Shown piece after piece: positions 4,716-30,784 of a stretch of 64,000 nt of DNA. Made by a program: the position numbers and the translations under genes. The DNA lies in the NCBI GenBank assembly GCA_021234155.1, contig JAJEKV010000031.1, positions 489,614 to 553,613 on the forward strand, written 5' to 3'. The notes beneath the pieces are model-generated. The model worked only from the letters and a program-made list of their open reading frames with translations, searched no databases and was not told the origin of the DNA. This DNA is from Isoetes taiwanensis (lineage: Eukaryota; Streptophyta; Lycopodiopsida; Isoetales; Isoetaceae). Each line of letters opens with the position of its first letter. The first letter of the stretch is position 1.

Positions 4716-5039
4716 AAAGTCAAATAGTTATGAACCCCCAACATCTTCTAGATATTGCAAATATCCATTTCCAAGCTTAACTTGGCCTCCACTTCTTCCT
4801 CTGCATTCCTTCAAAACATGCCTCGAACTGATTACAGTTTTTTTGGCTCCACTATCTCTAATTAACATGCCATCATTAGTTTTGCTATTCAAGGTAAATA
4901 CTGATAGAATTTATTTGCTTCTCCATACCTCTACATCCTCATCAGTTTCTTCATCCTCTTCGTTTACCTCTTGAACTTCGTAGATTGATGAATGATCTTT
5001 TGCCTATCATCTTCCTCTATTCTATTCTTCCTTTAACTG

Positions 5040-5560
5040 CAACATTAGCGCAAAAACCAGAACGTCTTCCCTTGCCTGTAGTATTAACTTTAGGGCTAGA
5101 ACACTTGATAGCATAATGGCCCTTCCCACCACAATTAAAACTCTCAATAGCTTCTTAATTCTTAGGGCAATAATTCTAAACGACCATACATATTGCATGT
5201 AAAAGATGGTCTTATTTTACCTATGTCAGAGTCATTTGATTGCTTTCAGAAACCTTCAAACTCCCTTGAGAGTTTTTCCTTCTAGCAAACAGTGCTCTAT
5301 GCTCCTTGCAACTTCATTTTCTTCAATAACTTCTTCTTGTTTAAATTATGTCTGTATCATATCCTCTAATTCTTTTTTAGTCTTACCCACATCCTTATAA
5401 GTGTCGTCATCTACTTATAATTGCTAATGGTCTTGGGTATGGCAAGTACCTGCTACTACTCATTCATCCACACACCTGCACCTTCAAGGTCTGCTATAAT
5501 GCTATTAAGCTTATTAAAGAAATCTGCTAGAGCGTGACGTTAAAATACTATCTATCTATC
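5040..5560 (-). pseudogene. Ty1/copia-type gag relic with zinc knuckle
   Basis: Read on the minus strand, the segment contains ADFFNKLNSIIADLEGAGV followed by IPKTISNYK, a pattern of copia gag, and about 350 bp further SFNCGGKGHYAIKC, a CCHC-type zinc knuckle whose first Cys is replaced by Ser. Stop codons and frameshifts interrupt the frame, so it cannot make a full protein. Related sequence may extend to about 5,870. No LTRs were found, so this is an isolated, old fragment. Confidence 0.6.
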
Positions 5561-13520: not shown

Positions 13521-13729
13521 GTTTATAACAATAATTTTGGCCTAGATCATGAAAAGCATTATAGAGAACTTAACATAGATCATGCTACAAGGCCCAAGCA
13601 TAGGACCAATGACGACATATTTCCCTTGATGATTTTAACCCAAACGAAAAAGGATTATCTCGAAAGAAAGAGACAGGATATTGTGGGCATGTGATTTCTT
13701 CAAGAACTTTCTAAATCTAGCTTTGTCGG

Positions 13730-15349
13730 TGTGACGCTCCCTGAACATATACGACCCTCGGGCGTATACATGCGGGGACTTTCCCCTCCCATGGCGACCA
13801 ACTTCGCCATGGCGAGAACCCTCCGATCTATTTCGGACCATCTATAATCGATGCGAAGAAGGAAGATTTGAAGGGTCATTCGCCCACGCCTTCAATGGGG
13901 CTCCTAAACGTCGGAAAGCGTGAATACAAGGGTTTACCACGGCATAAATCACATATAAATAACCACCGCGAAGGGTGGCATATCCATCAAATACCAGCGG
14001 CAAAGAATATGCATCTAAACCTAAGAAAACACCCCAAACCCATGGTTCTACCCGGTTCGGACTCGGTGAGGATCGGTGGCGGCTAGGCCTCAAGAGATCA
14101 GTGAGGAGAATCTTGACATGGCGTTGGGCGGCATAGAACATTGGCTAGGGTTGTCCACTCCATCGCCCCTCACATTGCACACTTTGCAGATGGGTCAATT
14201 CCGCTATGGCGTCAGCTATAGCCTTCCAGGAGGAGCTTGAGGCTCGAGGCATCACCTGGCGAGCCTACTCGGGGTTCATGAAGCCCGGTCCGATGAGGCA
14301 GGTCGAGGAAGCGTCCCCTTCGAGGAATCGGTGGCTCCATGGGCGAGCTAGAGAATCACGTGCCGCGTCGGCTGACCCCGCATCCGTGCAGGCTTACTCA
14401 CCCTAAATCTACTCAAAGTGCAAGGTGCCCCATACGGGTCACACCTTCCCACCAGAGTGTCGGACCCATACCGGCCCCCTCGTGACCGGCTATCGGGTCT
14501 AGCTTCGCTATAGGAGTCAGGGGGGCCTTTTATGTTCGTGCAAGACCCCACCTCCACTTCACTGCTTTGTGTTCCTTATGCGGTGCTAAGCCCGGTACCA
14601 TAGCATCTATGACGGTGGGCTCTTGTGCCTGAGGCGCATTTAATGGGATAATCTGGGGCTCTATCTAGGGCATACTACAATAAATAGCCTGGGAGGTCTC
14701 TACCCCCCTTAATCCCCATTTCGAGGTAACCCTAGGCTAACAACCACCAATCCATCCATTACAAAGGCTGAACCGAATCGAAATATATATAGAGAGAACC
14801 TACCTTTACAATCAAGGGTTAGTTCCTACGAGTAAACACAAAGAGAATAGATCAACAACCCAAGCGGGTGCCCACTTGGGGCTTATCCTAGAATTCACAA
14901 CTACACTAGCCACCCACGTGTTTTCGGCTCGACCCATTGTCATTGGGGATCTCCATCTTCTTGATCTTGGTGTTCAACTTGTGTAGAAGGGGTGGCGTCC
15001 AATTGCTCAAGGTGGCTCATTTCACGGTCACAAGGGTGGCTCCCTTTGCTCGGTGAGTTGTGGTCGATATGGGGGTGGTGATCCACCCTATTGACCCCAA
15101 TTAGCATTATCATGCTAGCCAATCGAGGGTGGCCGTGGTGCCTTCCCAAACCATAATTAGCTTAATTATGGTTTTTAAATATTAGTTCCTTAATTATAGG
15201 TTATTATTGTCAATAATTAAATTAGCTATGCTAATTTAATTCCTTTAAGTGAACCACCTAGGTTCCCATACCCCATGTGGTATTATGTATCCTTGGTGGC
15301 GATGTCAACATATTTATACTTATACCGTATAAATACTTGGGGCGTCACA
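13730..15349 (-). repeat. 3' LTR of the chromovirus
   Basis: 1,620 bp with terminal TGTGACGC and GCGTCACA. It matches 25,196-26,850 along its length. The differences are mostly 1-3 nt gaps in GC-rich stretches rather than substitutions. Spurious short ORFs occur on both strands. Confidence 0.92.
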
Positions 15350-15362: not shown

Positions 15363-16039
15363 AGAAACAATCGTCCTCGGCATTGAGGTTAGATAGAAAT
15401 ATAATAAATGACAAGAAGGAAATTCCTTATTTGAGGAAGATAATGTATTAAAACTTCAAAGTTTAAAAGCGGTTCAAGCAATAGTGTGGTGCAGTTTCAC
15501 ATGATTATCATAAGCAACAAGTTCAAGGACCCGAAGTCCAATATCAAAAAGCGGCGTAACACTAAAGAACTATGTGTAAACACCATGAAAGCGGAGAAAG
15601 TCCGGGTCATCGGCAACCCCTATACATGTGCAGGTCCGCGTCTTTGCTCAGCGGCCTTTGCACATGTCAATATATCGGTTTTCATAGATAAAATAATTAG
15701 GTTGTGGTTGAAGGGTCCACCCCTAGAAGAAATGAAAGAAAATTTATCTACAAAGGAACCTATTATGCCTATGGTTCGCAATTCATTGCGGCGTAAGGAA
15801 GTTCATGCTTTACAAGCGGTTAGGTGGTCGTGTCCACATTGGTGATTACACCACGCCCTAAGGAACGAAGGTGATCCCATCATCGATGAATTGTTGTTAA
15901 CTACAATGCATCTACCCCCTCGATTCTCGTGAATCAAGTCTTCAAGCTTACCAGGGGGCGGGGTTGATAGCATCGTTGATAGTCGCGACCTTGAGATTCG
16001 GCGCATGAAATCCGGGGTAGTGCTTCTCAAGATCTGTTT
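15363..16039. other. Untranslated region between chromodomain and polypurine tract
   Basis: Part of the chromovirus. No intact ORF with recognisable domains; the short plus-strand ORF at 15,486-15,845 shows no known motif. Confidence 0.45.
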
Positions 16040-17300
16040 GCATCACCCATTAGCATCCTCCAGCGGCAAGTGTTTCCACTTGACCAAGTATTGTAGCATT
16101 TGAGTCCTCCTGGTACCGTTTATAAGCTTCGATCAAGAAGAGCTTGGGGTACTATCTCTAGCTGCTCCCTCTGTCATTTCAGGAGGGTTGGGGTTTCCAA
16201 AACCTCCTCACGGATCGAGGGTGTGTCTTTGCTTTAGAAGACTCACATGAAAACCTTGTGGATCTTTAAGCGGGGTGGCAAGTCCAAGGTGATATGCTTG
16301 CTCCCCAATACGTTCAGTGATTTGAGCGGTCCAGCCCATCGGGTGCCAACTTCTTGCAATTACCAATCTTAAGCTTGGCTTGTTTTACCTTAATCTTAAG
16401 CCAAACCGATTCACCCACTGGAAGACCGGTGGGGTCTGTGCTTATATCGCTACACTTTTTTGGCGGCTTGCGTGCAACTAGCAAGTAACCCGTGCCGTGC
16501 GACCAAAGCTTGCATCTCCGGAGGAGTTGTTGAGAAACCTCCACTTTCGACGCGGGGTTGTGCCATGTGTCAGGAGTAAGGCATTGATAACCATAATTTA
16601 TCATGAAAGGAGACGTGCGGAAGACTCACGTTTCATCTTTGTTATAGGCAAACTCTACTAGATAAATATAGTCGGCCCATTGGGATTGCTTACTCCACAT
16701 AACCGTAGCATATCCTCTATGATACGGTTGATGCCGCTTCTGTCGACCATCCGTCTAAGGATGATATCGCGGTACTCATAGCAAGCTTGGTGCGGATGGT
16801 GGTGAAGAAATCCTTCGAATGCACTTACAAATTTGGGATCTGTCGGATACAATAACCGTGGCATTCCGGTGCAAGCACGAAGATCTCCTTTTGCGAAAAG
16901 CAAGGCGGTGTCGAAGGCGTTGTGGGTGATGCGACATGGCAAGAAGTGAGCCATTTTTGACAATTTGTCGGCGACCACCATTAGTGCATCATAGCCACGG
17001 AGAGTTAGGTGGAAGGCCCACAATGAAATCCATGGTTATTACTTCCCATTTTCGCGTGGGGGCACATCCAAAGGCTGCGCTCTCCTGGAACTCTTAGTTG
17101 CTCTCGCCTTGGTTTTGTGACACACTTGACACCGCTTAATGTATCTAGCAATATCGGAAGGCCAAAAGTAACTAGAGCGGATTTTAAAATAGGTCTTCAT
17201 AAAACCATGTCCGGCTATAGGGCTTTGTGCGTGTCATGGAGGATTAACTTACGCGCCGGAGGAAGTCGAGGTACACATAACTTATCCTTGTGATACAACA
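16040..17300 (-). pseudogene. Chromovirus integrase with chromodomain remnant
   Basis: From high to low coordinate the minus strand shows an H2C2 zinc-binding region (about 17,280-17,110), the core with MDFIVGLP, RGYDALMVV and DKLSKMAHFLPC, a second catalytic Asp in DPKFVSAF, the Glu region with MNRIIED-like sequence, then GESVWLKI and KLKIGNCKKLAP, typical of the integrase C-terminus. About 16,140-16,040 in shifted frames reads QYLVKWKHLPLEDA, the start of a chromodomain. The enzyme would insert the element, and the chromodomain would bind modified histone H3 tails. Several frameshifts mean no continuous protein as assembled. Confidence 0.85.
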
Positions 17301-17479
17301 AATTGCCCTCTTTCTTATATGAATGGAAAGCTTGGCGTTCTTTATCTGTCGCGTGCCTCCTTACTCAAACTAGCCCGATTTCCGCGAGCGGGATCGTGGC
17401 CAAGGTCCGTTCTATCGTTTCCCAAACTCAGCGGGTGAGTGTAGAAATTACATTACAATGGGTTCGGGTTACAGAGGGG

Positions 17480-19530
17480 TGGCGTGACAATGCATCCGCA
17501 ACCACATTGTGCTTTCCGGCTTATACATGATGTCAAAATCATATTCTTCAAGAAATTCCATCCATCTCCTCGGCCGGAGGTTGAGGGTTAGGTTGGGTGG
17601 ATAAATAGCGGAGACTTTGGTGATCCCGTGTCCAGCTGGAATCTTCTACCAAGGAGGTAGTGTCTCCATATTCGCATGGCCTTGAACAACGACTAACAAC
17701 TCGATCATGGGTAGGATATCATTTGTTCGTCTCGTTCATCTTCTTTGAATCATAGGCAATAACCCTCCCTTCTTGCATCGGGACTCCACCGGTGGCAATT
17801 TGGTGGCATCTGTGGCCACTAGTTTATCCTTGTCGAGGGATCGGGCAGCGTGAGAGCGGATGGCGGCGTTAAGGCATCTTTAAGCTTGCTGGAAATTTCC
17901 ACGAACCTTAGTCTTCGGTGCTCCATCCAATCCTTCACCTTCTCATGCCCGTAAGGTTTGTAGAGGTCTTTGCAATCCTTGCAAAATCCTTTACAAACTT
18001 TTCGATAGTATCCCCGCTAATCCCAAGAAACTTCGGACCTCGGAGACATTTTACGGAATAGGCCATTCCCTTGACGGCCTCTATTTTTCTTTGGATGTAG
18101 CAATTCCCCTTCTGAGAAATGATATGGCCCAAATAGTCAACCTTTGGGTGGCAAACTTGCACTTAGAGAACTTGGCAAAAGGCGATGGCGTCTTAACTTT
18201 TGTAGGGCCAATTGAAGATGTTTCTCATGCTCTTCTAGAGTCTTCTTGTAGATGAGAATGTAGATCAAAGAAAATGACAACAAAATCATCCAAGTATTGT
18301 CGAGGAAAACATCGTTCATTAACCGCATAAACGTTCTTTGGGGCATTAGTTAATCGAAAGGCATAACGGTAAACTCATAATGGCCATATCTAGTCGCGAA
18401 AAGCCGATTTATGGATGTCCTCCTCTTTAATCCTTATCCGATGATATCGGCGAAGGTCAATCTTTGAAAAATATTTGGCCCCTGCCTGGCCTGATCCATT
18501 AGATCATCGCTCTCGGCAAAGCATAGCGATTTTTGATGGTATGCTTGTTGAGTTCTTAGATAATCAATACACATTCTCAAGGAGCCGATCCTTTTTCTTT
18601 ACAAAAGAATAGGGGCACCAAAGGAAAGCAGCTAGGTCGAATAAATCCTAGGTTTAGTAGCTCTTGAAGTTGCTTCTTAAGCTCACGCCAACTCGGGGGA
18701 CTCATACGGATGCGGAGCCTTGCTGGTAGGCTTAGTGCGGCTCTAAAGCTATCTCACATTCTACCCCTCTAAAAGGAGGAAGCTTACGGATCTCGATGCG
18801 GGAAAAGATCGCTAAATTCATGGAGAATCTTGGCAATCCCCGTGGCAAGGTGTTGATTACTTGGTTTTGCTTAGCATCGACTCAATGGAAGCAAGTCTAA
18901 TAATGCGGAGGAGCGTTTGCTATGCGTATAGCTTTATCTAAGCTGTGTCGAATGGACATAGACTGCATGATAGGGTTGAATGGTTCACCTTTTATAGTTA
19001 CCGCGGGCTCCATTAGCTGCGTTGAAGGTAACTTCTCTCTTTCGCAGATCTATGTTGGCTTTTGCGGATGCCAAGAATTCCATTCCAACAATGAGGTCGT
19101 ATTTGCCAATATCCATTAACTTCGGCACCCATAGCTTGGCCAGTGCGCTGGCAAGCTGCATCTTAAGGTTGATCGCGGCGACCATGAGTATGTCTAACCT
19201 TACCAGCGGCTAAAGTGCCGGGTCTCGATTCGTGACCTTAGGGTTTTCGGTTGTAGGACTGGGCCATTCTAGGAGAAGCAAAATTATGTGTACTCCCTCA
19301 GGTATCCATAAGAATTACAAAAGGCTTCTTGTCTATTTGGCCTATGGTGGAAATGACGGCGGTGACTTTCGGCATTACCCGGTTTCTATAGCTGCAAGGA
19401 TATGAGGCCTTGCAGTGAATGTACTTTCGGGGGGCGTCCTGCGTCGGCAGTAATGTTGACTCAATATCGTCAGTCAAGGGTAGGCCATGGCGGTAGGCGT
19501 GCGGGTGGCTATATGGGCAGTGCATGAAGT
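17480..19530 (-). pseudogene. Chromovirus protease, reverse transcriptase and RNase H
   Basis: The protease is seen as KPFVILMDT (catalytic Asp; the following Gly is lost in an indel) and KYDLIVGMEFLASAKANIDL. The RT follows, with RLMNDVF, a YLDDFVVIF catalytic block around 18,300 in a shifted frame, TLEEHEKHLQLALQKLRRH and VDYLGHIISQKG. RNase H follows with weaker matches down to about 17,500. The domains are in the expected gypsy order and strand. The frame changes every few hundred bases. Confidence 0.85.
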
Positions 19531-20620
19531 GTCAGGCCTCATACACCTGTAACATGCCTTATCGCGCAGCTGTTCTCGGCCTCTTTAGGAATGGACTGTA
19601 GAGGTTTTGAACTTCCTTACCAGCATTGTTCGCTTATGCGGCGTGCTAAGCGACTTTCTTCTCAGCGGCAAGTAAGGTTGGCGAGAGGGCCCGGACTTGA
19701 AGGCGGGGTTTTGTAAGGTGTGGGCGGCCGTGTTGCTTGAGTAAGGGCGGGGCCGGATCTTGTTCCCTGGTATGTCCTCCTCGAGGCTCAATGCTTTAGC
19801 CACCATTACCTGCCCGATTTTGGATTCGATGGCCTTAACCATCCGTTTGATCGATGGTGCCAAACCCTCAATATAGCCCTCCTTTGCCCCTTTTCTCATT
19901 CATACGGGTACATCTGGTCGGTAGCATAAACTCATCCGTGTAAGCACATGCGGACATACTCTTCCGCTCCGGCTGTGAAAGTCGGATCTGTTGGCATTTA
20001 TGTACAGGAGGCACATAATGCGATTTGAAAACTTGGCAAACTTTACGAAGTTGCATCTACTCTGTCCGGATGTTTGGCTCGGCATAGCCCTTCCACCAAA
20101 TACAGGCAGCTCCGGTAAGGTTTGTGGTGGCAACCTTTCTGTATCCTTCTCTGTCATGCCATAGGACTGCTTAGAACTCCTTCATTTTCGTCCGGCCGGG
20201 ATTGGCATTCAAGCGCCTCTAGATTTCCCATCAAAGCGGGCCAATTTCCTATTCTTCCATATACTAGTTATGGTTTGTATCAAGCTTCTCCGGTACTCCT
20301 TATCTCGGCTTTGCATGGCCACCCGGATGATGCGGATGATTCGGATGACACCAAGTGGCGGACTTTGAGGAGATGGCACTCTAGAGGAGCTCCGGCGCGT
20401 TTAGAGTGGGGACCTCTTCGCCACTGCAGGACGGTTCGTGTGGTGGGGGTGGTACGGCGAGGGTGGACTAGGGCGGCAACGGAGGTAACTTCGGTGCATC
20501 ATTGTACATCTTGTGGTGGGTTAGCATGCAAGGCGTAGACACCGTAATTCGCCTAACCGATCTTTTTCATCAAAGATCAATTCTTGTTCGGTGTTAACCG
20601 ACCGGCGATTTGAGGGTGTC
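19531..20620 (-). pseudogene. Chromovirus gag
   Basis: The minus strand shows a gag-like helical region with SMSACAYTDEFM and EKRGKGGLYRGF-like sequence after a stretch resembling the capsid domain (AACIWWKGYAEPN). It lies directly upstream of the protease. Start and end are blurred by frameshifts; a start near 20,620 (MPLDTLKSPVG) is possible. Confidence 0.7.
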
Positions 20621-20890
20621 AAGCGGCATTGCGTGCACCGTCTATATTAAACATACGATGATATAAGAAAGAGTACGATAACAGTAAGTGTTATAACAAA
20701 GTCATTTTGGGTAGTATCGAGAAACACAAAGTGAACACGAAAAAGGACGGAAGATTCAAATTACAAGCGAAATGACGGTTACATCAAAGAAGTTCATACG
20801 GAACACAGTTATAAACTTATAGTTATATAATACATAAAGAGGCCTGAGCCATAGTGAAGCATAGGAACACACAAAACTGGAAATTGCGGC

Positions 20891-21351
20891 TTAAGGGTTT
20901 GCGTAGGGATACATGACGGCATAGCGCACACTCTCACGCACAGCTCTGACGAGCTTGTAACGTGCCCAAGCCTGGATAATAACGGGTTGATAATCCCAAG
21001 TGGGGCTAATAATCAGAAGGTTGAAGAGCCTTCGCAGTGCGTAGAAGATTTGCCAGAGATGATCATTAGCATCCTCAAAAGCTTGATGTGGGGTCATATT
21101 CCAATAATCCCAAGTACGGGAAAGAGTCCATTTCAGATCATCGTAAGCACGTTCTCGAAGAAGAGTAACTACTTCCATGCCCTTGTCAGGATCATAAGGT
21201 TGTTCCGGCACCCTAAGCTCCGCTATCTCATCGTCAACTTCCCGTTCAGGATACTCGTTGTATCGTTCCCCATAGTCTTGTTCAGGAGGTCCCTGTTCAT
21301 CTCTCCTTATCTGGGATATTATCCTATCTTCGTACTCCGCGAGTGTTTCTT
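20891..21351 (-). CDS. Unknown acidic protein exon inside the chromovirus (extra gene, 3' exon)
   Basis: An intact frame of about 153 codons starts after a strong splice acceptor (TCGTCTTGCAG) and ends in a stop at 20,891. It reads ETLAEYEDRIISQIRRDEQG at the N-terminal side, then an acidic Glu/Tyr/Pro-rich stretch, then a helical part with TWDYWNMTPHQAFEDANDHL. No family is recognised. It has no frameshifts, unlike gag-pol just downstream. The acceptor suggests that it is spliced to the region at 21.8-23.0 kb. It lies between the H3-like gene and gag, on the same strand. Confidence 0.45.
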
Positions 21352-21840
21352 CTGCAAGACGACAGGAATAATTATATATACATTGAACAATTTCCTTCTA
21401 CTCCAACTTTAAGGAAGATAATTAATCATTAAAAGGAGAAGACAATTCAATGGTTTTCAACAGTGCAAGGAACATAAGAAGTTATCCTGAATATATATAA
21501 AATTGAAACAGTACATAGATTTTAGTGTTGGCCCACTAGAGGTAATGCCAATCAAGATTAATAAAATTTCATACGATGACCCAATGAAACCTAAAACTAA
21601 GAGGTCGATCCTTCAACATCTTGTGCTTGAGTATTAAACTGGGGCTCTGGTCGATGCTGTAGGAGTAGCACGCTAGGATTAACTGATGAGGCAGCTGATG
21701 AAGCTATCTCTGGAGGAACATTTGTAGCCAATGGCGCCAAGAACCAGCAGACTCATGTTCATCCAAGAACCAATCTCATGGTCAAAAACCGCAGAACGGC
21801 AAGGTCGCGGTTCACTAGGATGATCGCTCAAGGTTAAGAG
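21352..21840 (-). other. Possible intron or spacer inside the chromovirus
   Basis: AT-rich sequence between two coding-like stretches of the extra gene; its left edge has a good minus-strand splice acceptor. Nothing else recognised. Confidence 0.35.
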
Positions 21841-23040
21841 CTAACTTCTTGTGGAATTTGTGGTGGAAAGTGCCCTTAATGCCTCCATACCCGCCTCGCC
21901 GGGCAATTGCCTTAACAAAGAAGAGAGACAACCGCTTGTAAAAAAGCCGACGGGAAGAATCGAGTAATATGGCATTTCAACCCCCTCAACCATCTGGATG
22001 GGTTGAAAAGGCCAACTCAGGACTCCAAGTTCCGGGGCAGCTCCTCCTCCATGGCAAAATCCTTCTCCCCGAGCATACCGACTCTCATCACATAAATCCT
22101 CCATGGTTGGGTCGTCCTCCGCCTTGACGACGGCGCCGTTGATGTTGGGCACATGTGGGCCCAGAGCGGAAAAGCCGCATTCGTGAACTCAAGATGGGGT
22201 ACCACTGAATCATTAATCGGCGCGAAAGACAAGAGCAAAAGGCTTGATAGGCTCAACATCAAGAGGTTGATAGTTGAGCACTGATGTATCTCCTCGGCGC
22301 ATAATTGGGGCAGAGTAATCAATGAAATCATGTTGACCACGACAATATTCGCCAGCTCATAGAAGGTGAGCGGTCCTCTGCTTACCCTTATTGGCGATAT
22401 GTCGATACGCCCATTGAATGTCGCCGCCAGCAAGTAATCCTCGATCCCCAACCTTGATGGTAGCAAGCTTAACTCAATCCCACAAGTGCTTGGCCCTACT
22501 ACGAGGTAAAGGCCTCTCTTTAGCTAACTCCTTCCATCGCACAAAAATCAGCAAAAGTTTATCTGCTCGTCCTCCTCCTGGATCTGGAGGAAGTGGGGCC
22601 TTAGCTTGCTCTAAAGCGGTGTCGCATTACTATCAACATACCCCGCCCATAATAAGAGCAAGGGCAAACGGGCTTCAAAGTATAGCCCATTAGAGCCACA
22701 ATCGATAATGGGAGCGTGCTTAGCATCGCGTCGATGATGCCCTTGAGGATGTCATAGTCGTATGCATCATCTCCCAACATATGCTCCACAATATCTCTGT
22801 GGAAGATAAGGTTGGGCGGTTCCCCAAAGAATTCGCCTCGGGCAATATTTCCTCATCATAGAACTCTACAAAGGTCGATAGTCGGGGTGGGCGCATATTG
22901 TCGATGAGGTCATTGAACTGGAAGTAACATATAATCCAAGAGAGGGTAAGGAACACAGGGGTCCCATTGCTCGCCTCCCATATACCATGCTAGTCGGCCC
23001 ATTGCGTAGTCCATCATGCTAGCGGGTAGGGTCCATCACC
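21841..23040 (-). pseudogene. Unknown coding-like region inside the chromovirus (extra gene, 5' part)
   Basis: Minus-strand frames in series read MDYAMGRLAWY, FNDLIDNMRPPRLSTFVEFY, EHMLGDDAYDYDILKGIIDA and, further on, HLWDWVKLATIKVGDRGL, with 1-2 nt shifts between them. The composition is protein-like and the strand agrees with gag-pol, but I recognise no family. It may be one gene with the exon at 20.9-21.35 kb. It could be a captured host gene or a lineage-specific extra ORF like those upstream of gag in some gypsy lineages. Confidence 0.4.
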
Positions 23041-23143
23041 GCAGGAAGATGGGAGGAAGAAGGGAACAGGAGTAAGAAATGATGAAACCCTAAAAATGAA
23101 TCTGAGTCTTTAACTTGGCGGCTTTGAGGCTGACTCATCATCA

Positions 23144-23171
<28 letters not shown>
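23144..23171 (-). repeat. Poly(A) run (minus strand) after the H3-like gene
   Basis: 28 consecutive T on the plus strand, that is A28 on the coding strand, about 100 bp after the likely stop codon of the H3-like frame. It looks like the tail of a processed transcript, or it may simply be an A-tract. Confidence 0.75.
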
Positions 23172-23175
<4 letters not shown>

Positions 23176-23271
23176 GTAGGAAAATTCACAATTTAAAATA
23201 AGAAGTCAAAAACAGTTTCGATATTATATATATACCGCATTTACATAGATACAAAATTGTTATATACATAA

Positions 23272-23905
23272 TTATGACCGTTCCCCACCGGATCCCAAGC
23301 GCCAACCGTAGGTCTTTTGTCATGATGGTTACCGCTTGGCATGGATGGCACATAGGTTTTGCATCGCCAAAGAGGGCCACCAAGTAAGCCTCGATCGCCT
23401 CCGGTGCTAGAATGGCATGAGTTTGAAAACTAAGGTCCGTCTTAAATTCTTGGGCAATCTCTGGGGACCGATTTGGAAAGGAAGTTTTAAATGTAAAGCT
23501 TCCGGTGGATTTGTACTTCCTTATCTCGAAGTGCCACGGTGGCTTGTAACGATGCCTCCTCCTAGGTTGGGTGCATTTCCGGGGTAGAGTCTTCCCTGCT
23601 GTTCGGGATCTTAGGGCTTCTGGATGATGTTGTCGCCGGTTATCCCCTGCAGCCTTAGCGATTCCTCCTCGAGCCCTAAGCGATCCCTTATCTTTGAAAG
23701 TATCTTTGGGGTGTCTTCTTTTGTCTTCGGCGAGGAACACGGACTTCTGTGGGTGGTTGCTCTTGCCCATGCCTTTCTTCCTCTTCCTTCCTCGTGATGG
23801 CTCCTTCGCGGCGGCGGTTTGCCTCTCTTGCTCTCGCGCCTGTCCACGCATTCTCTTGTGATTTTGCTCTTGTTCTACCCGCTGGCGATGGATAGTATCC
23901 TCCAC
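23272..23905 (-). CDS. Divergent histone H3-like protein with long basic N-terminal region, carried by the chromovirus
   Basis: The C-terminal part lines up with histone H3 from the tail to the end of the fold: HRYKP, then EIRKY, KST, EIAQEFKTDLSFQ (plant H3: EIAQDFKTDLRFQ), EAYLVALFGDA (EAYLVGLFEDT) and VTIMTKDLRLA (VTIMPKDIQLA), ending GGERS then TAA at 23,272 after a one-base shift. Loop 1 has canonical length, so it is not a typical CENH3. Helix N differs strongly (GSFTFKTSFPNRSP). Upstream lies a Lys/Arg/Gln-rich region of more than 100 residues, and coding-like sequence in shifted frames continues to about 24,540 (QAKLKKYGIFREAPSLKG). Three or four small gaps relative to H3 (for example around KPG and CAIHA) look like indel noise. 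Intronless here; a poly(A) run follows. It might be a retrocopy captured by the element or a nested insertion. Confidence 0.75.
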
Positions 23906-24540
23906 GAAGCTTGGCGACCTCCTCCAATCAACTAATGTGTTGCCTTCTCAGGCTTGCGCCCCGAGTGGGTGTGGCTTGCTCTGCTCGCTTCTCTTTGGCT
24001 ATTCTGATCTCCGATTTCTTCTTGTAAGCTCTATGAAGTAACGTGGGGGGATTAGCTTGCATATCTCGCTCAACAGCCGCTGAAAGTGATCACGTGAAAA
24101 TGAGGGTGATCCCGCTTCCGGAGGATACGGTTGGTCTCCTCTTCATATGAAAACGATGGAGTAGCCTCCCCATCAAAGAGGCATACGCCGTTTCCGTGTG
24201 TAGCGGTATCCGGGCCGGATCATCCGAGCGTTAGCCATGGAGGTCCGCCTCTTGGGCCATTTGCAAACCTGTTTTGGGGCTGCGTTTGTAGGGGCCCCCT
24301 CCTCGGCTTGTTCATCCCCTGGCTGGCGGGAAGAATCGGGCATACCGGGCGCCATCTTCTGTTCAACTATCATGCGGTGTCTCCAATGGCGTTGAGCTTA
24401 AATACAAAAACGCTCATTATAGCAAAAGAGCGGGTATGGTATTCGACCCCCTTCAGAGAAGGCGCTTCACGAAATATTCCGTATTTCTTCAGTTTTGCTT
24501 GTGCATCCTGGCGGGGGGTTTTTTTGTTGTGGCGCTGACC
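23906..24540 (-). other. Coding-like sequence upstream of the H3 fold
   Basis: Protein-like minus-strand segments (AKLKKYGIFREAPSLKGVEY near 24,480; KMAPGMPDSSRQPGDEQAEE near 24,330) precede the H3-like frame but are separated by frame changes. They may be the N-terminal part of the same protein or another small ORF. No domain recognised. Confidence 0.35.
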
Positions 24541-24823
24541 ATTAAGAACTCTATAGGGGTTTGAGAATGACGAGGTTTGCGCTTTTATACACTTGCTTGG
24601 GTGTCTCCATCCTTGAAAGGTAGGCGCTTAGGCGGGCCGGGCGGCGGGGGGGAGGAAGGTGAAGGCCGAGGTTTGGCTATGGCGGAGGCCTCCTTCTAGT
24701 CTACAAACTATTGCGGCTAGGGCGGAGCTCAAAGGGCGCTAGGTATTCAGAAAAAGTGAAAGAAAAAGTCACTCTTAAAATTTTAACCCTAAAAAAAAAC
24801 TTTTTATGAAAAAGTGGCGGAGC

Positions 24824-25010
24824 GCTTTTCGAGGTGGCGGGCACCCCCTACCTCGACATCGCTTACCAGGCGCCAAGTCCCGGGTACCCCTGCCCGCCAC
24901 TTAGGGTTTTTTTTTTTTTTTTTTATACGAGGTGGCGGCACCTCCTACCCCGAGGTTTCTCACTTGCCGCCACGACACAGGGTACCCCTACGGCGCCACT
25001 TAGGGTTAGG
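24824..25010 (-). repeat. Tandem repeat in the chromovirus leader
   Basis: Two adjacent imperfect copies of about 90-100 bp share CCCTAAGTGGCG, GGGGTACCC and CCGCCACCTCG blocks and are separated by an A-run. They lie between the primer site and the first coding-like sequence. Confidence 0.65.
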
Positions 25011-25173
25011 GTTTGGCACCGGGTACTCACCTCTTATTTACTCTTAAACCACGTTAAAGCAATCATGACGACATCTACTACACCACCCCAAATCTCATAC
25101 TACCCAAAAATCCTCACACACTAGCTAACGATCTAACGAGTTAGTATGTGGGCAGTGCAATAGTTTGGCTTCC

Positions 25174-25193
25174 CAGAACCATGCTCGATACCC
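25174..25193 (-). promoter_or_regulatory. Primer binding site, initiator Met tRNA type
   Basis: Two bases inside the 5' LTR end, the minus strand reads GGTATCGAGCATGGTT, matching the usual TGGTATCAGAGC-type site complementary to initiator tRNA-Met except for one missing A. The missing base fits the small-gap pattern of the whole element. Confidence 0.75.
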
Positions 25194-25195
25194 TT

Positions 25196-26850
25196 TGTGG
25201 ACGCCTCGAACATATACGACCCTCCGGACGTATACATCACGAGGACTTTCCCTCCCATGGCGACCAACTTCGCCATGAGCGGGAACCCTCCAGATCTATA
25301 TTCGGGCCATCTATAATACGATGCCCGAAAGAAGGATTGAAAAGGTCATTCGCCCGCGCCTTCAATGGGGCTCCTACGTCGGCGGAAGCGTGAATACAAG
25401 GGTTAGCACACAACATAAATCACATATAAATAACCACCACGAAGGGTGGCATATCCATCCAAATACCAACGGCAAAGAATATGCATCTAAACCTAAGAAA
25501 ACACCCCAAACCCATGGTTCTACCCCGGTTTAGACTCCAGTGAGGATCGACCGACGGCTAGGCCTCAAAGAGATCGCAGATTTAATCTTGACATGGCGTT
25601 ATCGGCATAGAACATTGGCTAGGGTTGTCCACTCCATCCGCCCCTCTTGTGCACACTTTGCAGATGGGTCAATTCACGTATATGGCGCCGCTATAGCCTT
25701 CCTTCGGAGACGCAGGCTCGAGGCATCACCCCTCGGGCCGAGCCTACCTGGGGTTCATGAAGCCCCTGGTCCGATGAGGCCGGTCGGAAGCGTCCCCTTC
25801 CGTAATCACGGTGGCTCCATGGGCGAGAAGCTAGAGAATACGTGCGCATCGGCGACCCCGGCATCCGTACCCGACTTACTCACCCTAAATCTACTCAAAG
25901 TGCAAAGGTGCCCCATACGGGTCACACCTTCCCACCTGGGAGTGTCGGGGACCCATACCCCGCCCTCACGTGACCGGCTATCAGGTCTAGCTCGCTATAT
26001 AGGAGTCCCGGGAGCCTTTTATATTCGTGCAAGACCCCACCTCCACTTCACCACTTGTGTTCCCTTTGTCCGTGCTGCCCATTACCATAGCATCTATGAC
26101 CCGGTGGGTTCTCTTGTGCACACGTGCCGCATTTAACGGGATATCTAGGGGCTCTATCTAGGAGCATACTACAATAAATAGCCTCGAGAGGTCTCTACCC
26201 CCCTTAATCCCCCATTTCAGAGTAACCCTAGGCTAACAACCACCAATCCATCCATTACAAGTTGAACGGAATCTAAATATATATAGAGAGAACCTACCTT
26301 TACAATCAAGGGTTAGTTCCTACGCAGTAAACACAAAGAGAATAGATCAACAACCCAAGCAGGTGCCCAATGAGCGCTTATCCTAGAATTCACAACTACA
26401 CTAGCCACCCACCTGTGTTTCGGCTCGACCCATTGTCATTGGGGATCTCCATCTTCTTGATCTTGGTGTTCAACTTGTGTAAGAAGGGTGGCGTCCAATT
26501 GCTCAAGGTGGCGCTCAGCTCTGGTCACAAGGGTGGCGCTCCACTGCTCCAGGTGAGTTGTGGCTGATATGGGGGTGGTGATCCACCCTATTGACCCCAA
26601 TTAGCATTATCATGCTAGCCAATCGAGGGTGGCCACGTGGCGCCTTCCCAAACCATAATTAGCTTAATTATGGTTTTTAAATATTAGTTCCTTAATTATA
26701 GGTTATTATTGTCAATAATTAAATTAGCTATGCTAATTTAATTCCTTTTAAGTGAACCACCTAGGTTCCCATACCCCATGTGGCGTATGTATCCTTGGTG
26801 ATGTGTCAACATATTTATACTTATACCGTATAAATACTTGGAACGTCACA
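25196..26850 (-). repeat. 5' LTR of the chromovirus
   Basis: 1,655 bp, ending CGTCACA on the plus strand and starting TGTGGACGCC. It should contain the element promoter. It is 35 bp longer than the other LTR because of many small gaps in both copies. Confidence 0.92.
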
Positions 26851-26855
26851 GTCGG

Positions 26856-30310: not shown

Positions 30311-30784
30311 TTAACAAGTATGGGAATGATGGAAGGAAGCATCATGAGGAAGGTAAATGGTGCATTTAAGGAGAACAGTGCTCTCAGGAATATTAAGGGC
30401 CTCAGTGATATAAGTAGCAAAGCCAGAAGCCCTTCTAAAGTCCCCAGTACCCCCAACAATGGCAAGTTCTCTTTCTTGCTTAGGGCCAAGGGCAACATCA
30501 GTGCCTTGGAAAGCAATGGTGCCATAGAACTTATCAGTATCAAGGGCAGCACTGAAGCAAAGGAAGGCCTCATCTTTTCCAACAGTGGCCACCATGAAGG
30601 TCCCTTTGCCATTCCCAATCTTCTTAGAATTCTCATCTTTTTCTTCTGTTATAAGGGTGTCTATGACAAACATGGATCCAAATTGTGTGTGCTCTGTGTC
30701 ACCGTGCGGCCCAGCGGCTCGCACGCTCGTCGCGGGCTTGCCATGGAGGTGCAGATCTAGGTGCACAACCTTCTGGTGCTCCAT
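30311..30784 (-). CDS. Dirigent family protein, no signal peptide
   Basis: A single-exon frame of 157 residues begins MEHQKVVHLDLHLHG. Dirigent features are HLDLHLHG at the start of the beta-barrel, GSMFVIDTLIT, IGNGKGTFMVATVG, LCFSAAL, and the C-terminal VGGTGDFRRASGFATYI. Dirigent proteins steer radical coupling or ring formation in lignan, lignin or related pathways. Most are secreted with an N-terminal signal peptide; this one starts directly at the barrel and has none, so it is either cytosolic, like the monocot jacalin-fusion class without its lectin part, or lacks an upstream exon. A TATA box lies 74-80 bp upstream of the ATG. The frame is intact. Confidence 0.88.
   Translation of the reverse strand: MEHQKVVHLDLHLHGKPATSVRAAGPHGDTEHTQFGSMFVIDTLITEEKDENSKKIGNGKGTFMVATVGKDEAFLCFSAALDTDKFYGTIAFQGTDVALGPKQERELAIVGGTGDFRRASGFATYITEALNIPESTVLLKCTIYLPHDASFHHSHTC

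What the first reader, a model, noticed from the sequence alone, without database searches (positions are those of the whole stretch)
23272..24540. Chromodomain retrotransposon that carries a histone H3-like gene
Seen: between the primer site and gag of a complete Ty3/gypsy element, on the element's coding strand, lies a frame with clear H3 blocks (HRYKP, EIRKY, EIAQEFKTDLSFQ, EAYLVALFGDA, VTIMTKDLRLA) after a long Lys/Arg-rich region. Known: chromovirus integrases carry chromodomains that read H3 tail marks. Inference: the element may supply its own divergent H3, for targeting, for packaging its cDNA, or to mark chromatin where it inserts. I know of no described plant LTR element with a histone.
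Basis: partly seen in the sequence, partly recalled or inferred. Interest (0 to 1): 0.92.

Follow-up and report, generated by a model that had tools for sequence, protein, structure and literature searches.

The report
Retrotransposon carrying its own histone H3
In what looks like a quillwort genome, a family of jumping genes carries as its first gene a histone H3 fused to an unknown protein domain; some copies are still unbroken and sequence comparison indicates that selection has kept the histone part, so these elements may make part of their own chromatin.

Summary
The H3-like segment is real (PF00125, E 4e-10) and lies on the coding strand of a complete Ty3/gypsy element, between primer site and gag. 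In this copy the frame is broken. Of 20 related loci fetched, mostly chosen for long frames, 14 have unbroken frames of 456-494 codons: unknown N-terminal domain, charged linker, basic tail, C-terminal H3 fold (80-86 of 97 residues as host H3 in 19 loci). LTR lies upstream in 18 of 20, ORF2 downstream in 19. A test blind to H3 agrees: of 81 integrase hits every tenth was checked and 8 of 8 have H3 upstream, though none of the 6 fetched keeps a full unbroken frame. The H3 fold was the most constrained of six regions compared (median dN/dS 0.03-0.06; gag 0.14-0.45). Most fold contact residues are kept, but the K4/K9/K27 tail is replaced. The genome matches Isoetes taiwanensis. Nine searches of a partial library showed no retrotransposon-encoded histone; the nearest cases are fungal hAT transposons with captured H3 and single viral histones. 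Entry into nucleosomes and any use for anti-silencing or targeting are inferred, not shown.

The parts
26851..26855 (.). 5-bp target site duplication (CCGAC on the element strand), 5' side
25196..26850 (-). 5' LTR (TGTGACG...)
   Evidence: 88.6% identical to 13730-15349; K2P 0.128
25183..25195 (-). degenerate primer binding site; 11 of 18 related loci with a placed LTR end show exact TGGTATCAGAGC right after it
   Evidence: identity as an initiator-Met-tRNA PBS is recalled
24611..25182 (-). leader between PBS and ORF1; a leader of similar place is conserved among 8 aligned copies of another subfamily
23272..24610 (-). ORF1 (decayed): N-terminal domain, charged linker, basic tail, H3 fold; ends at TAA 23274-23272
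23275..23554 (-). histone H3 fold (from His39 to the C-terminus)
23144..23171 (-). A28 run in the AT-rich ORF1-ORF2 spacer; longest A-run near the same place 5-26 nt in 20 relatives, so not a retrocopy poly(A) tail
21600..23093 (-). ORF2 (decayed), ~500-aa protein of unknown family
   Evidence: tblastn with L019 ORF2; no Pfam or PDB match for relatives
20894..21370 (-). ORF2x2, conserved frame of ~160 aa, perhaps a second exon of ORF2
   Evidence: 93.8% identity to L011 frame; splicing not tested
18036..20666 (-). gag, protease and RT (decayed)
   Evidence: RVP_2 at 18985-19209
16458..18032 (-). RNase H and integrase (decayed)
16001..16158 (-). chromodomain (decayed)
   Evidence: tblastn with L029 chromodomain, 71% identity over 38 aa, E 1.9e-13
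13730..15349 (-). 3' LTR
13725..13729 (.). 5-bp target site duplication, 3' side

Best explanation
This is a dead copy of a chromovirus family, probably of the lycophyte Isoetes, whose first gene, ORF1, encodes an H3 variant: an H3 fold at the C-terminus, a basic tail that is not the H3 tail, a charged linker and an element-specific N-terminal domain. Shown: ORF1 is a standing part of the element in divergent subfamilies, unbroken in some copies, and its divergence pattern is that of purifying selection, strongest in the H3 fold. Inferred: the protein pairs with host H4 and enters nucleosomes in place of H3. Inferred with lower confidence (about 0.35): it is laid on the element's own new DNA or at its insertion sites, where the N-terminal domain tethers element proteins; a tail without K4, K9 and K27 would keep that chromatin from receiving the host's usual active or silencing marks.
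For: Of 20 loci found by H3: LTR upstream 18, ORF2 downstream 19, gag downstream within the stretch 16; of 3 more: LTR 3, ORF2 3, gag 2. Every tenth of 81 integrase hits: 6 of 6 fetched and 2 of 2 by coordinates have H3 upstream. 14 of 20 loci have unbroken 456-494-codon frames, 22 of the 135 non-host hits listed have open frames of 450 or more. Pfam Histone at E about 1e-41 in three ORF1 proteins. Median dN/dS of the H3 fold 0.03-0.06, gag CA-NC 0.14-0.45; H3 below gag in 45 of 47 (non-independent) pairs. Integrase-sampled pairs with unsaturated dS: 0.027, 0.088, 0.104, 0.122. In 19 loci, 64 of 97 H3 positions equal host H3 throughout, among them R69, R72, R83, C110, H113, K115, R116, T118, D123, L126, I130 (contact roles recalled). 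N-terminal parts of 9 loci keep 31 invariant columns at 30-35% identity between subfamilies. Precedent: bracovirus H4, an extended-tail viral histone, enters host nucleosomes (PMC9145170, passages).
Against: No transcript, protein or chromatin data. The window copy is broken. None of the 6 integrase-sampled loci keeps a full unbroken ORF1: the frame holding H3 is 37-270 codons, and in 3 further H3 hits 127-212. Among those six, L033 has Q at R116, L038 R at H113 and a stop, L036 several changes, L037 lacks the first 11 fold codons in alignment. The 20 loci were picked by H3 score and mostly for long frames, which biases H3 dN/dS low; 11 of 15 unbiased H3 pairs have saturated dS. RT and integrase were not in the dN/dS comparison. 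No LTR match in 2 of 20 loci, no gag within the stretch in 4. Tree support separating element from cellular H3 is only 69. One genome only.
Confidence: 0.6

Rival explanations
1. The protein packs or condenses the element's nucleic acid (RNA or cDNA) in the virus-like particle, as a nucleocapsid helper, and is not a nucleosome component.
For: Strongly basic tail (by eye); gene lies upstream of gag; some giant viruses use histones to organise their genomes (PMC12297534, listing).
Against: Gag has a CCHC-like motif of its own (zf-CCHC_2 E 0.005, below its cut-off). Most contact positions for H3-H3', H4 and DNA are unchanged, which mere condensation would not need. No H4 partner was found in ORF2.
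Confidence: 0.15
2. The protein poisons or titrates host H3 chaperones or silencing readers, a decoy that relaxes silencing without marking element chromatin.
For: Tail lacks the K4/K9/K27 context (by eye); the H3 fold is conserved.
Against: A decoy would not obviously need conserved DNA-contact residues and a conserved ~200-residue N-terminal domain.
Confidence: 0.15
3. A passenger: a host H3 captured once and carried along without function.
For: Gene capture by plant LTR elements is well known (PMC13317346, passages); the window copy and the 6 integrase-sampled copies have broken frames.
Against: dN/dS well under 1 between subfamilies whose dS is high or saturated; unbroken frames in 14 of 20 loci; H3 present in 8 of 8 of the integrase sample.
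Confidence: 0.05
4. A poly(A)-tailed H3 retrocopy nested in this one element (my own first reading).
For: TAA, AT-rich stretch and A28 downstream of H3.
Against: No clear target duplication around it; the A-run is a variable feature of the spacer in relatives; the gene is in the other copies.
Confidence: 0.01

Closest known systems
Chromoviruses (Ty3/gypsy with integrase chromodomain)
   Same: LTR, PBS, gag, PR-RT-RH-INT order, chromodomain at the INT C-terminus (PF00385 E 1.5e-8), 5-bp TSD
   Different: Extra ORF1 with H3 fold and usually ORF2 between PBS and gag; the chromovirus clade was not determined
hAT DNA transposons carrying captured histone H3 in fungi (Pyrenophora H3L, PMC3538342; Pseudocercospora and relatives, PMC6710886)
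   Same: A mobile element carrying an H3-like gene in many copies; ESTs reported for Pyrenophora H3L
   Different: There a TIR DNA transposon: 26 very similar copies in Pyrenophora, hundreds of RIP-inactivated copies in Pseudocercospora. Here an LTR retrotransposon, H3 fused to an element-specific domain, divergent subfamilies, purifying selection
Single viral histones (bracovirus H4, singlet H3s of large DNA viruses; PMC9145170)
   Same: One host-like histone; fold 82-89% identical to the host's here, 73-89% in the review
   Different: Retroelement; H3 with an N-terminal extension of over 300 residues
Gene capture by plant LTR elements (maize Bs1, rice and sorghum surveys; PMC13317346)
   Same: Host-derived sequence inside an LTR element
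   Different: Bs1 holds segments without full-length ORFs; here a complete fold found in every sampled copy of the family
CENH3/CENP-A and other H3 variants with long N-tails
   Same: H3 fold with a divergent long N-terminus
   Different: Fold is canonical-type: 80-86 of 97 to host H3, 51-56 to typed Arabidopsis CENH3

Membership tests
Ty3/gypsy chromovirus | LTRs with TG...CA ends and 5-bp TSD | tested here: met
   Two elements tested: window CCGAC; L017+L029 CAATC; ends TGTGACG...GTCACA
Ty3/gypsy chromovirus | PBS after the 5' LTR | tested here: met
   TGGTATCAGAGC exact in 11 of 18 loci with a placed LTR end; degenerate in the window
Ty3/gypsy chromovirus | gag, then PR-RT-RH-INT | tested here: met
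   L017: Ty3_capsid, RVP_2, RVT_1, RNaseH, H2C2, rve (rve 30.4 bits, below its cut-off of 32.6) in order
Ty3/gypsy chromovirus | chromodomain at the INT C-terminus | tested here: met
   PF00385 34.8 bits, over its cut-off of 25.1, in L029; decayed in the window
Histone H3 | H3 fold over the Pfam cut-off | tested here: met
   Window 40.3 bits; three intact ORF1 141-144 bits
Histone H3 | H3-H3', H4 and DNA contact residues | tested here: met
   Those named in the best explanation are unchanged in 19 tabulated loci; R63 18 of 19, K64 9 K and 10 R, R42 11 R and 8 K. Among 6 integrase-sampled copies L033 has R116Q and L038 H113R. Contact roles recalled
Histone H3 | canonical N-terminal tail (K4, K9, K27, K36) | tested here: not met
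   Replaced in the ORF1 translations (by eye); only a TGGK-like patch and (R)KPHRYRPG-like end remain
Histone H3 | assembles into nucleosomes | not testable with these tools
   -
CENH3 | CENH3-type fold (longer loop 1, divergent core) | tested here: not met
   No loop-1 insertion; 51-56 of 97 identical to typed Arabidopsis CENH3 against 80-86 to host H3 (L027 truncated and left out)
Processed H3 retrocopy | own TSD and absence from sister copies | tested here: not met
hAT-H3L type transduplication | H3 between terminal inverted repeats of a DNA transposon | tested here: not met
   LTR element with TSD; no inverted-repeat pair frames the gene within 20400-25200

The most novel reading that the evidence does not exclude
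A retrotransposon that builds its own nucleosomes: newly made copies are wrapped in an element-encoded H3 whose tail cannot carry the host's K4/K9/K27 marks and whose N-terminal domain recruits the element's own proteins, possibly read by the integrase chromodomain, so that the element writes and reads its own chromatin code.
Probability: 0.25. Interest if true: 0.97.

Novelty: new variant of a known kind. Interest (0 to 1): 0.9.

Why it matters
Host silencing of retrotransposons runs through marks on histone H3, and chromovirus integrases carry a domain that can read such marks. An element that encodes its own selected H3 variant with a replaced tail could be a direct weapon or address label in that conflict. 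It would open a testable case of a mobile element supplying its own chromatin, and a natural H3 whose fold is kept while the tail is free to change.

Tried and rejected
Poly(A) retrocopy reading: rejected. Lys/Arg-rich part as gag and not part of the histone gene (note): wrong, it belongs to ORF1. An age argument that H3 is older than the LTR insertion: dropped once relatives were found, because the divergence from host H3 is the family's own. ORF2 as a hidden H2A: an eye match only; hhalign probability 0.1, no histone in PDB hmmsearch. ORF1 N-terminal domain: no PDB match below E 0.5 and no relation to ORF2. L022 as a non-autonomous element: dropped, its second LTR is followed by a PBS-like site, so it looks like a tandem copy. 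Protein database search: 501 candidates, none scored; I infer that the collection holds few eukaryotic H3s.

Full report
Observation. On the minus strand at 23186-23905 an open frame matches Pfam Histone (E 4.3e-10) and H3 chains of the PDB (best 1.4e-17). The LTRs are 13730-15349 and 25196-26850, K2P 0.128 with 40 gap events over 1607 aligned sites. The element is flanked by CCGAC on both sides, so it is a complete insertion. The open frame of 253 codons exceeds all 500 dinucleotide shuffles of the element interior and 499 of 500 of the stretch 23140-24540.

Other copies. A PF00125 search of the window's own genome (1,658,258,908 bases, 1110 contigs) had 8705 first-look candidates, of which only the best 150 were scored; all 150 are over the cut-off. 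15 match from profile position 2 on, and the 8 of these that I read are canonical H3 genes; 135 match from position 4-25 on, 22 of them in open frames of 450 codons or more. I fetched 20 of the 135, mostly those with long frames. 14 of 20 have unbroken frames of 456-494 codons, stop to stop; L013 among them has an out-of-frame stretch in its N-terminal part. They share one layout: N-terminal domain of about 200 residues, charged linker, basic tail, H3 fold. At least three subfamilies differ greatly in the N-terminal part, yet 9 aligned N-terminal parts keep 31 invariant columns, so the fusion is old and most likely arose once. Size and scaffold count fit the published Isoetes taiwanensis assembly (1658.30 Mb, 204 scaffolds plus 909 contigs; PMC8566536, passages); this identification is inference. 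That assembly is from nanopore reads polished with short reads, so some indels in repeats may be assembly errors.

Context. In one search, of the 20 loci: ORF1 20, upstream LTR homologous to the window's 18 (not L018, L027), ORF2 19 (not L017), ORF2x2 15, gag/PR downstream within the stretch 16 (not L009, L020, L022, L024), all on one strand. Three further H3 hits taken from other places of the list gave LTR 3, ORF2 3, gag 2 of 3; their H3 frames are 127-212 codons. L017 with its neighbouring stretch L029 is a complete element: LTR, PBS, ORF1, gag, PR, RT, RH, INT, chromodomain (PF00385, 1.5e-8), LTR, TSD CAATC, LTR K2P 0.046; it lacks ORF2. That H3 is part of the element and no later nested insert rests on its presence at this place in the other copies, not on the TSDs.

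Reciprocal test. A search with the RNase H-integrase protein of L017, blind to H3, scored 81 copies at 94-97% identity (100% for the query itself) out of 41,437 first-look candidates. I took every tenth: ranks 10-60 were fetched, 4.5 kb each from the expected place; ranks 70 and 80 had an H3 hit upstream on the same strand. All 6 fetched have the H3 gene on the right strand, so 8 of 8. None of the 6 keeps a full unbroken ORF1 (frame with H3 37-270 codons), so broken copies are common. By coordinates alone, 9 of 81 integrase hits (the query included) have one of the 150 H3 hits 2.9-5.3 kb upstream; both lists are truncated, so the rest say nothing.

Selection. NG86 on 14 unbroken ORF1 frames: median dN/dS of the H3 fold 0.04, 0.06 and 0.02 in the dS bands 0.02-0.3, 0.3-0.8 and 0.8-3 (5, 23 and 13 pairs), N-terminal domain 0.11-0.14, linker 0.16-0.26. 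On all 20 loci, anchored on intact proteins, medians over three dS bands: H3 0.03-0.06, rest of ORF1 0.22-0.32, ORF2 0.14-0.20, ORF2x2 0.10-0.53, gag CA-NC 0.14-0.45, PR 0.16-0.24; RT and integrase were not compared. H3 lies below gag in 45 of 47 pairs, which are not independent. These loci were found by H3 score, which favours conserved H3. The integrase sample is free of that: 15 H3 pairs, 11 with saturated dS and dN 0.09-0.20, 4 with measurable dS and dN/dS 0.027, 0.088, 0.104 and 0.122; no stop inside the aligned H3 part in 5 of 6. Against host H3, dS is saturated for all 14.

The histone. 80-86 of 97 fold residues equal host H3 in 19 loci (L027 is truncated and left out), 51-56 equal typed Arabidopsis CENH3. 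In the 19 loci tabulated 64 of 97 positions are identical to host H3 in all; the contact residues named in the best explanation are among them (roles recalled). Exceptions appear in the integrase-sampled copies: R116Q in L033, H113R in L038, a changed stretch in L036. Shared changes are T107A (19 of 19), E105 to G or S (19), V89I (18) and I124L (18). The tree separates the cellular H3s and CENH3s used from the element H3s with support 69, which fits one capture but does not prove it. The tail is not an H3 tail: in the translations the K4, K9 and K27 contexts are missing, by eye.

How it may work. Shown: an element-borne H3-fold gene, unbroken in some copies, with the signature of purifying selection. 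From known biology: an H3 fold with its contacts kept should be able to enter nucleosomes, and an extended viral H4 does so in insects (PMC9145170, passages). Inferred: deposition on element DNA, tethering by the N-terminal domain, escape from K9 or K27 marks, reading by the element's chromodomain. I cannot tell these apart here.

Known work. Nine searches of the held library, of which I saw the listed rows only, showed no retrotransposon with a histone; (six direct phrases) found 0 papers; one search listed 25 of 120. Most subscription papers and all preprints are not held. Precedents: fungal hAT transposons with H3 (PMC3538342, passages; PMC6710886, abstract and passages), viral histones (PMC9145170, passages), and plant gene capture (PMC13317346, passages; the word histone does not occur). 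PMC2864245 (passages) reports additional ORFs and a dUTPase in LTR elements but, in the passages seen, no histone.

Noticed in passing
21600-23093 (-); L019:2779-4284 (-), L022:2779-4227 (-): ORF2, about 500 aa, conserved (dN/dS medians 0.14-0.20), no Pfam or PDB relative; absent from L017, and in L034 gag follows ORF1 directly.
   Followed up: partly
20894-21370 (-); L011:6612-7127 (+): ORF2x2, a frame of ~160 aa, 94% identical between window and L011 and preceded by a TTGCAG-like acceptor (by eye), perhaps a second exon of ORF2.
   Followed up: no
spacer after ORF1, e.g. L011 near 4990-5040: A TATA-like GTATAAAACC lies before ORF2 in several copies (by eye): ORF2 may have its own promoter.
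   Followed up: no
24830-24908 and 24928-25007: Two diverged copies (78%) of a GC-rich ~80-bp unit in the leader, also hit in several related loci.
   Followed up: no
13730-15349 vs 25196-26850: LTR divergence is uneven: the first three 200-bp blocks 16-18%, the last three 3-9.5%, as after partial gene conversion.
   Followed up: no
L022: Second LTR followed by a PBS-like site: apparently tandem element copies.
   Followed up: partly
30311-30784 (-): Open frame that looks like a dirigent-type plant protein (by eye, recalled, not searched).
   Followed up: no
L001-L008: Eight host H3 genes with near-identical proteins; two types, S or T at position 87, and E at 77.
   Followed up: no
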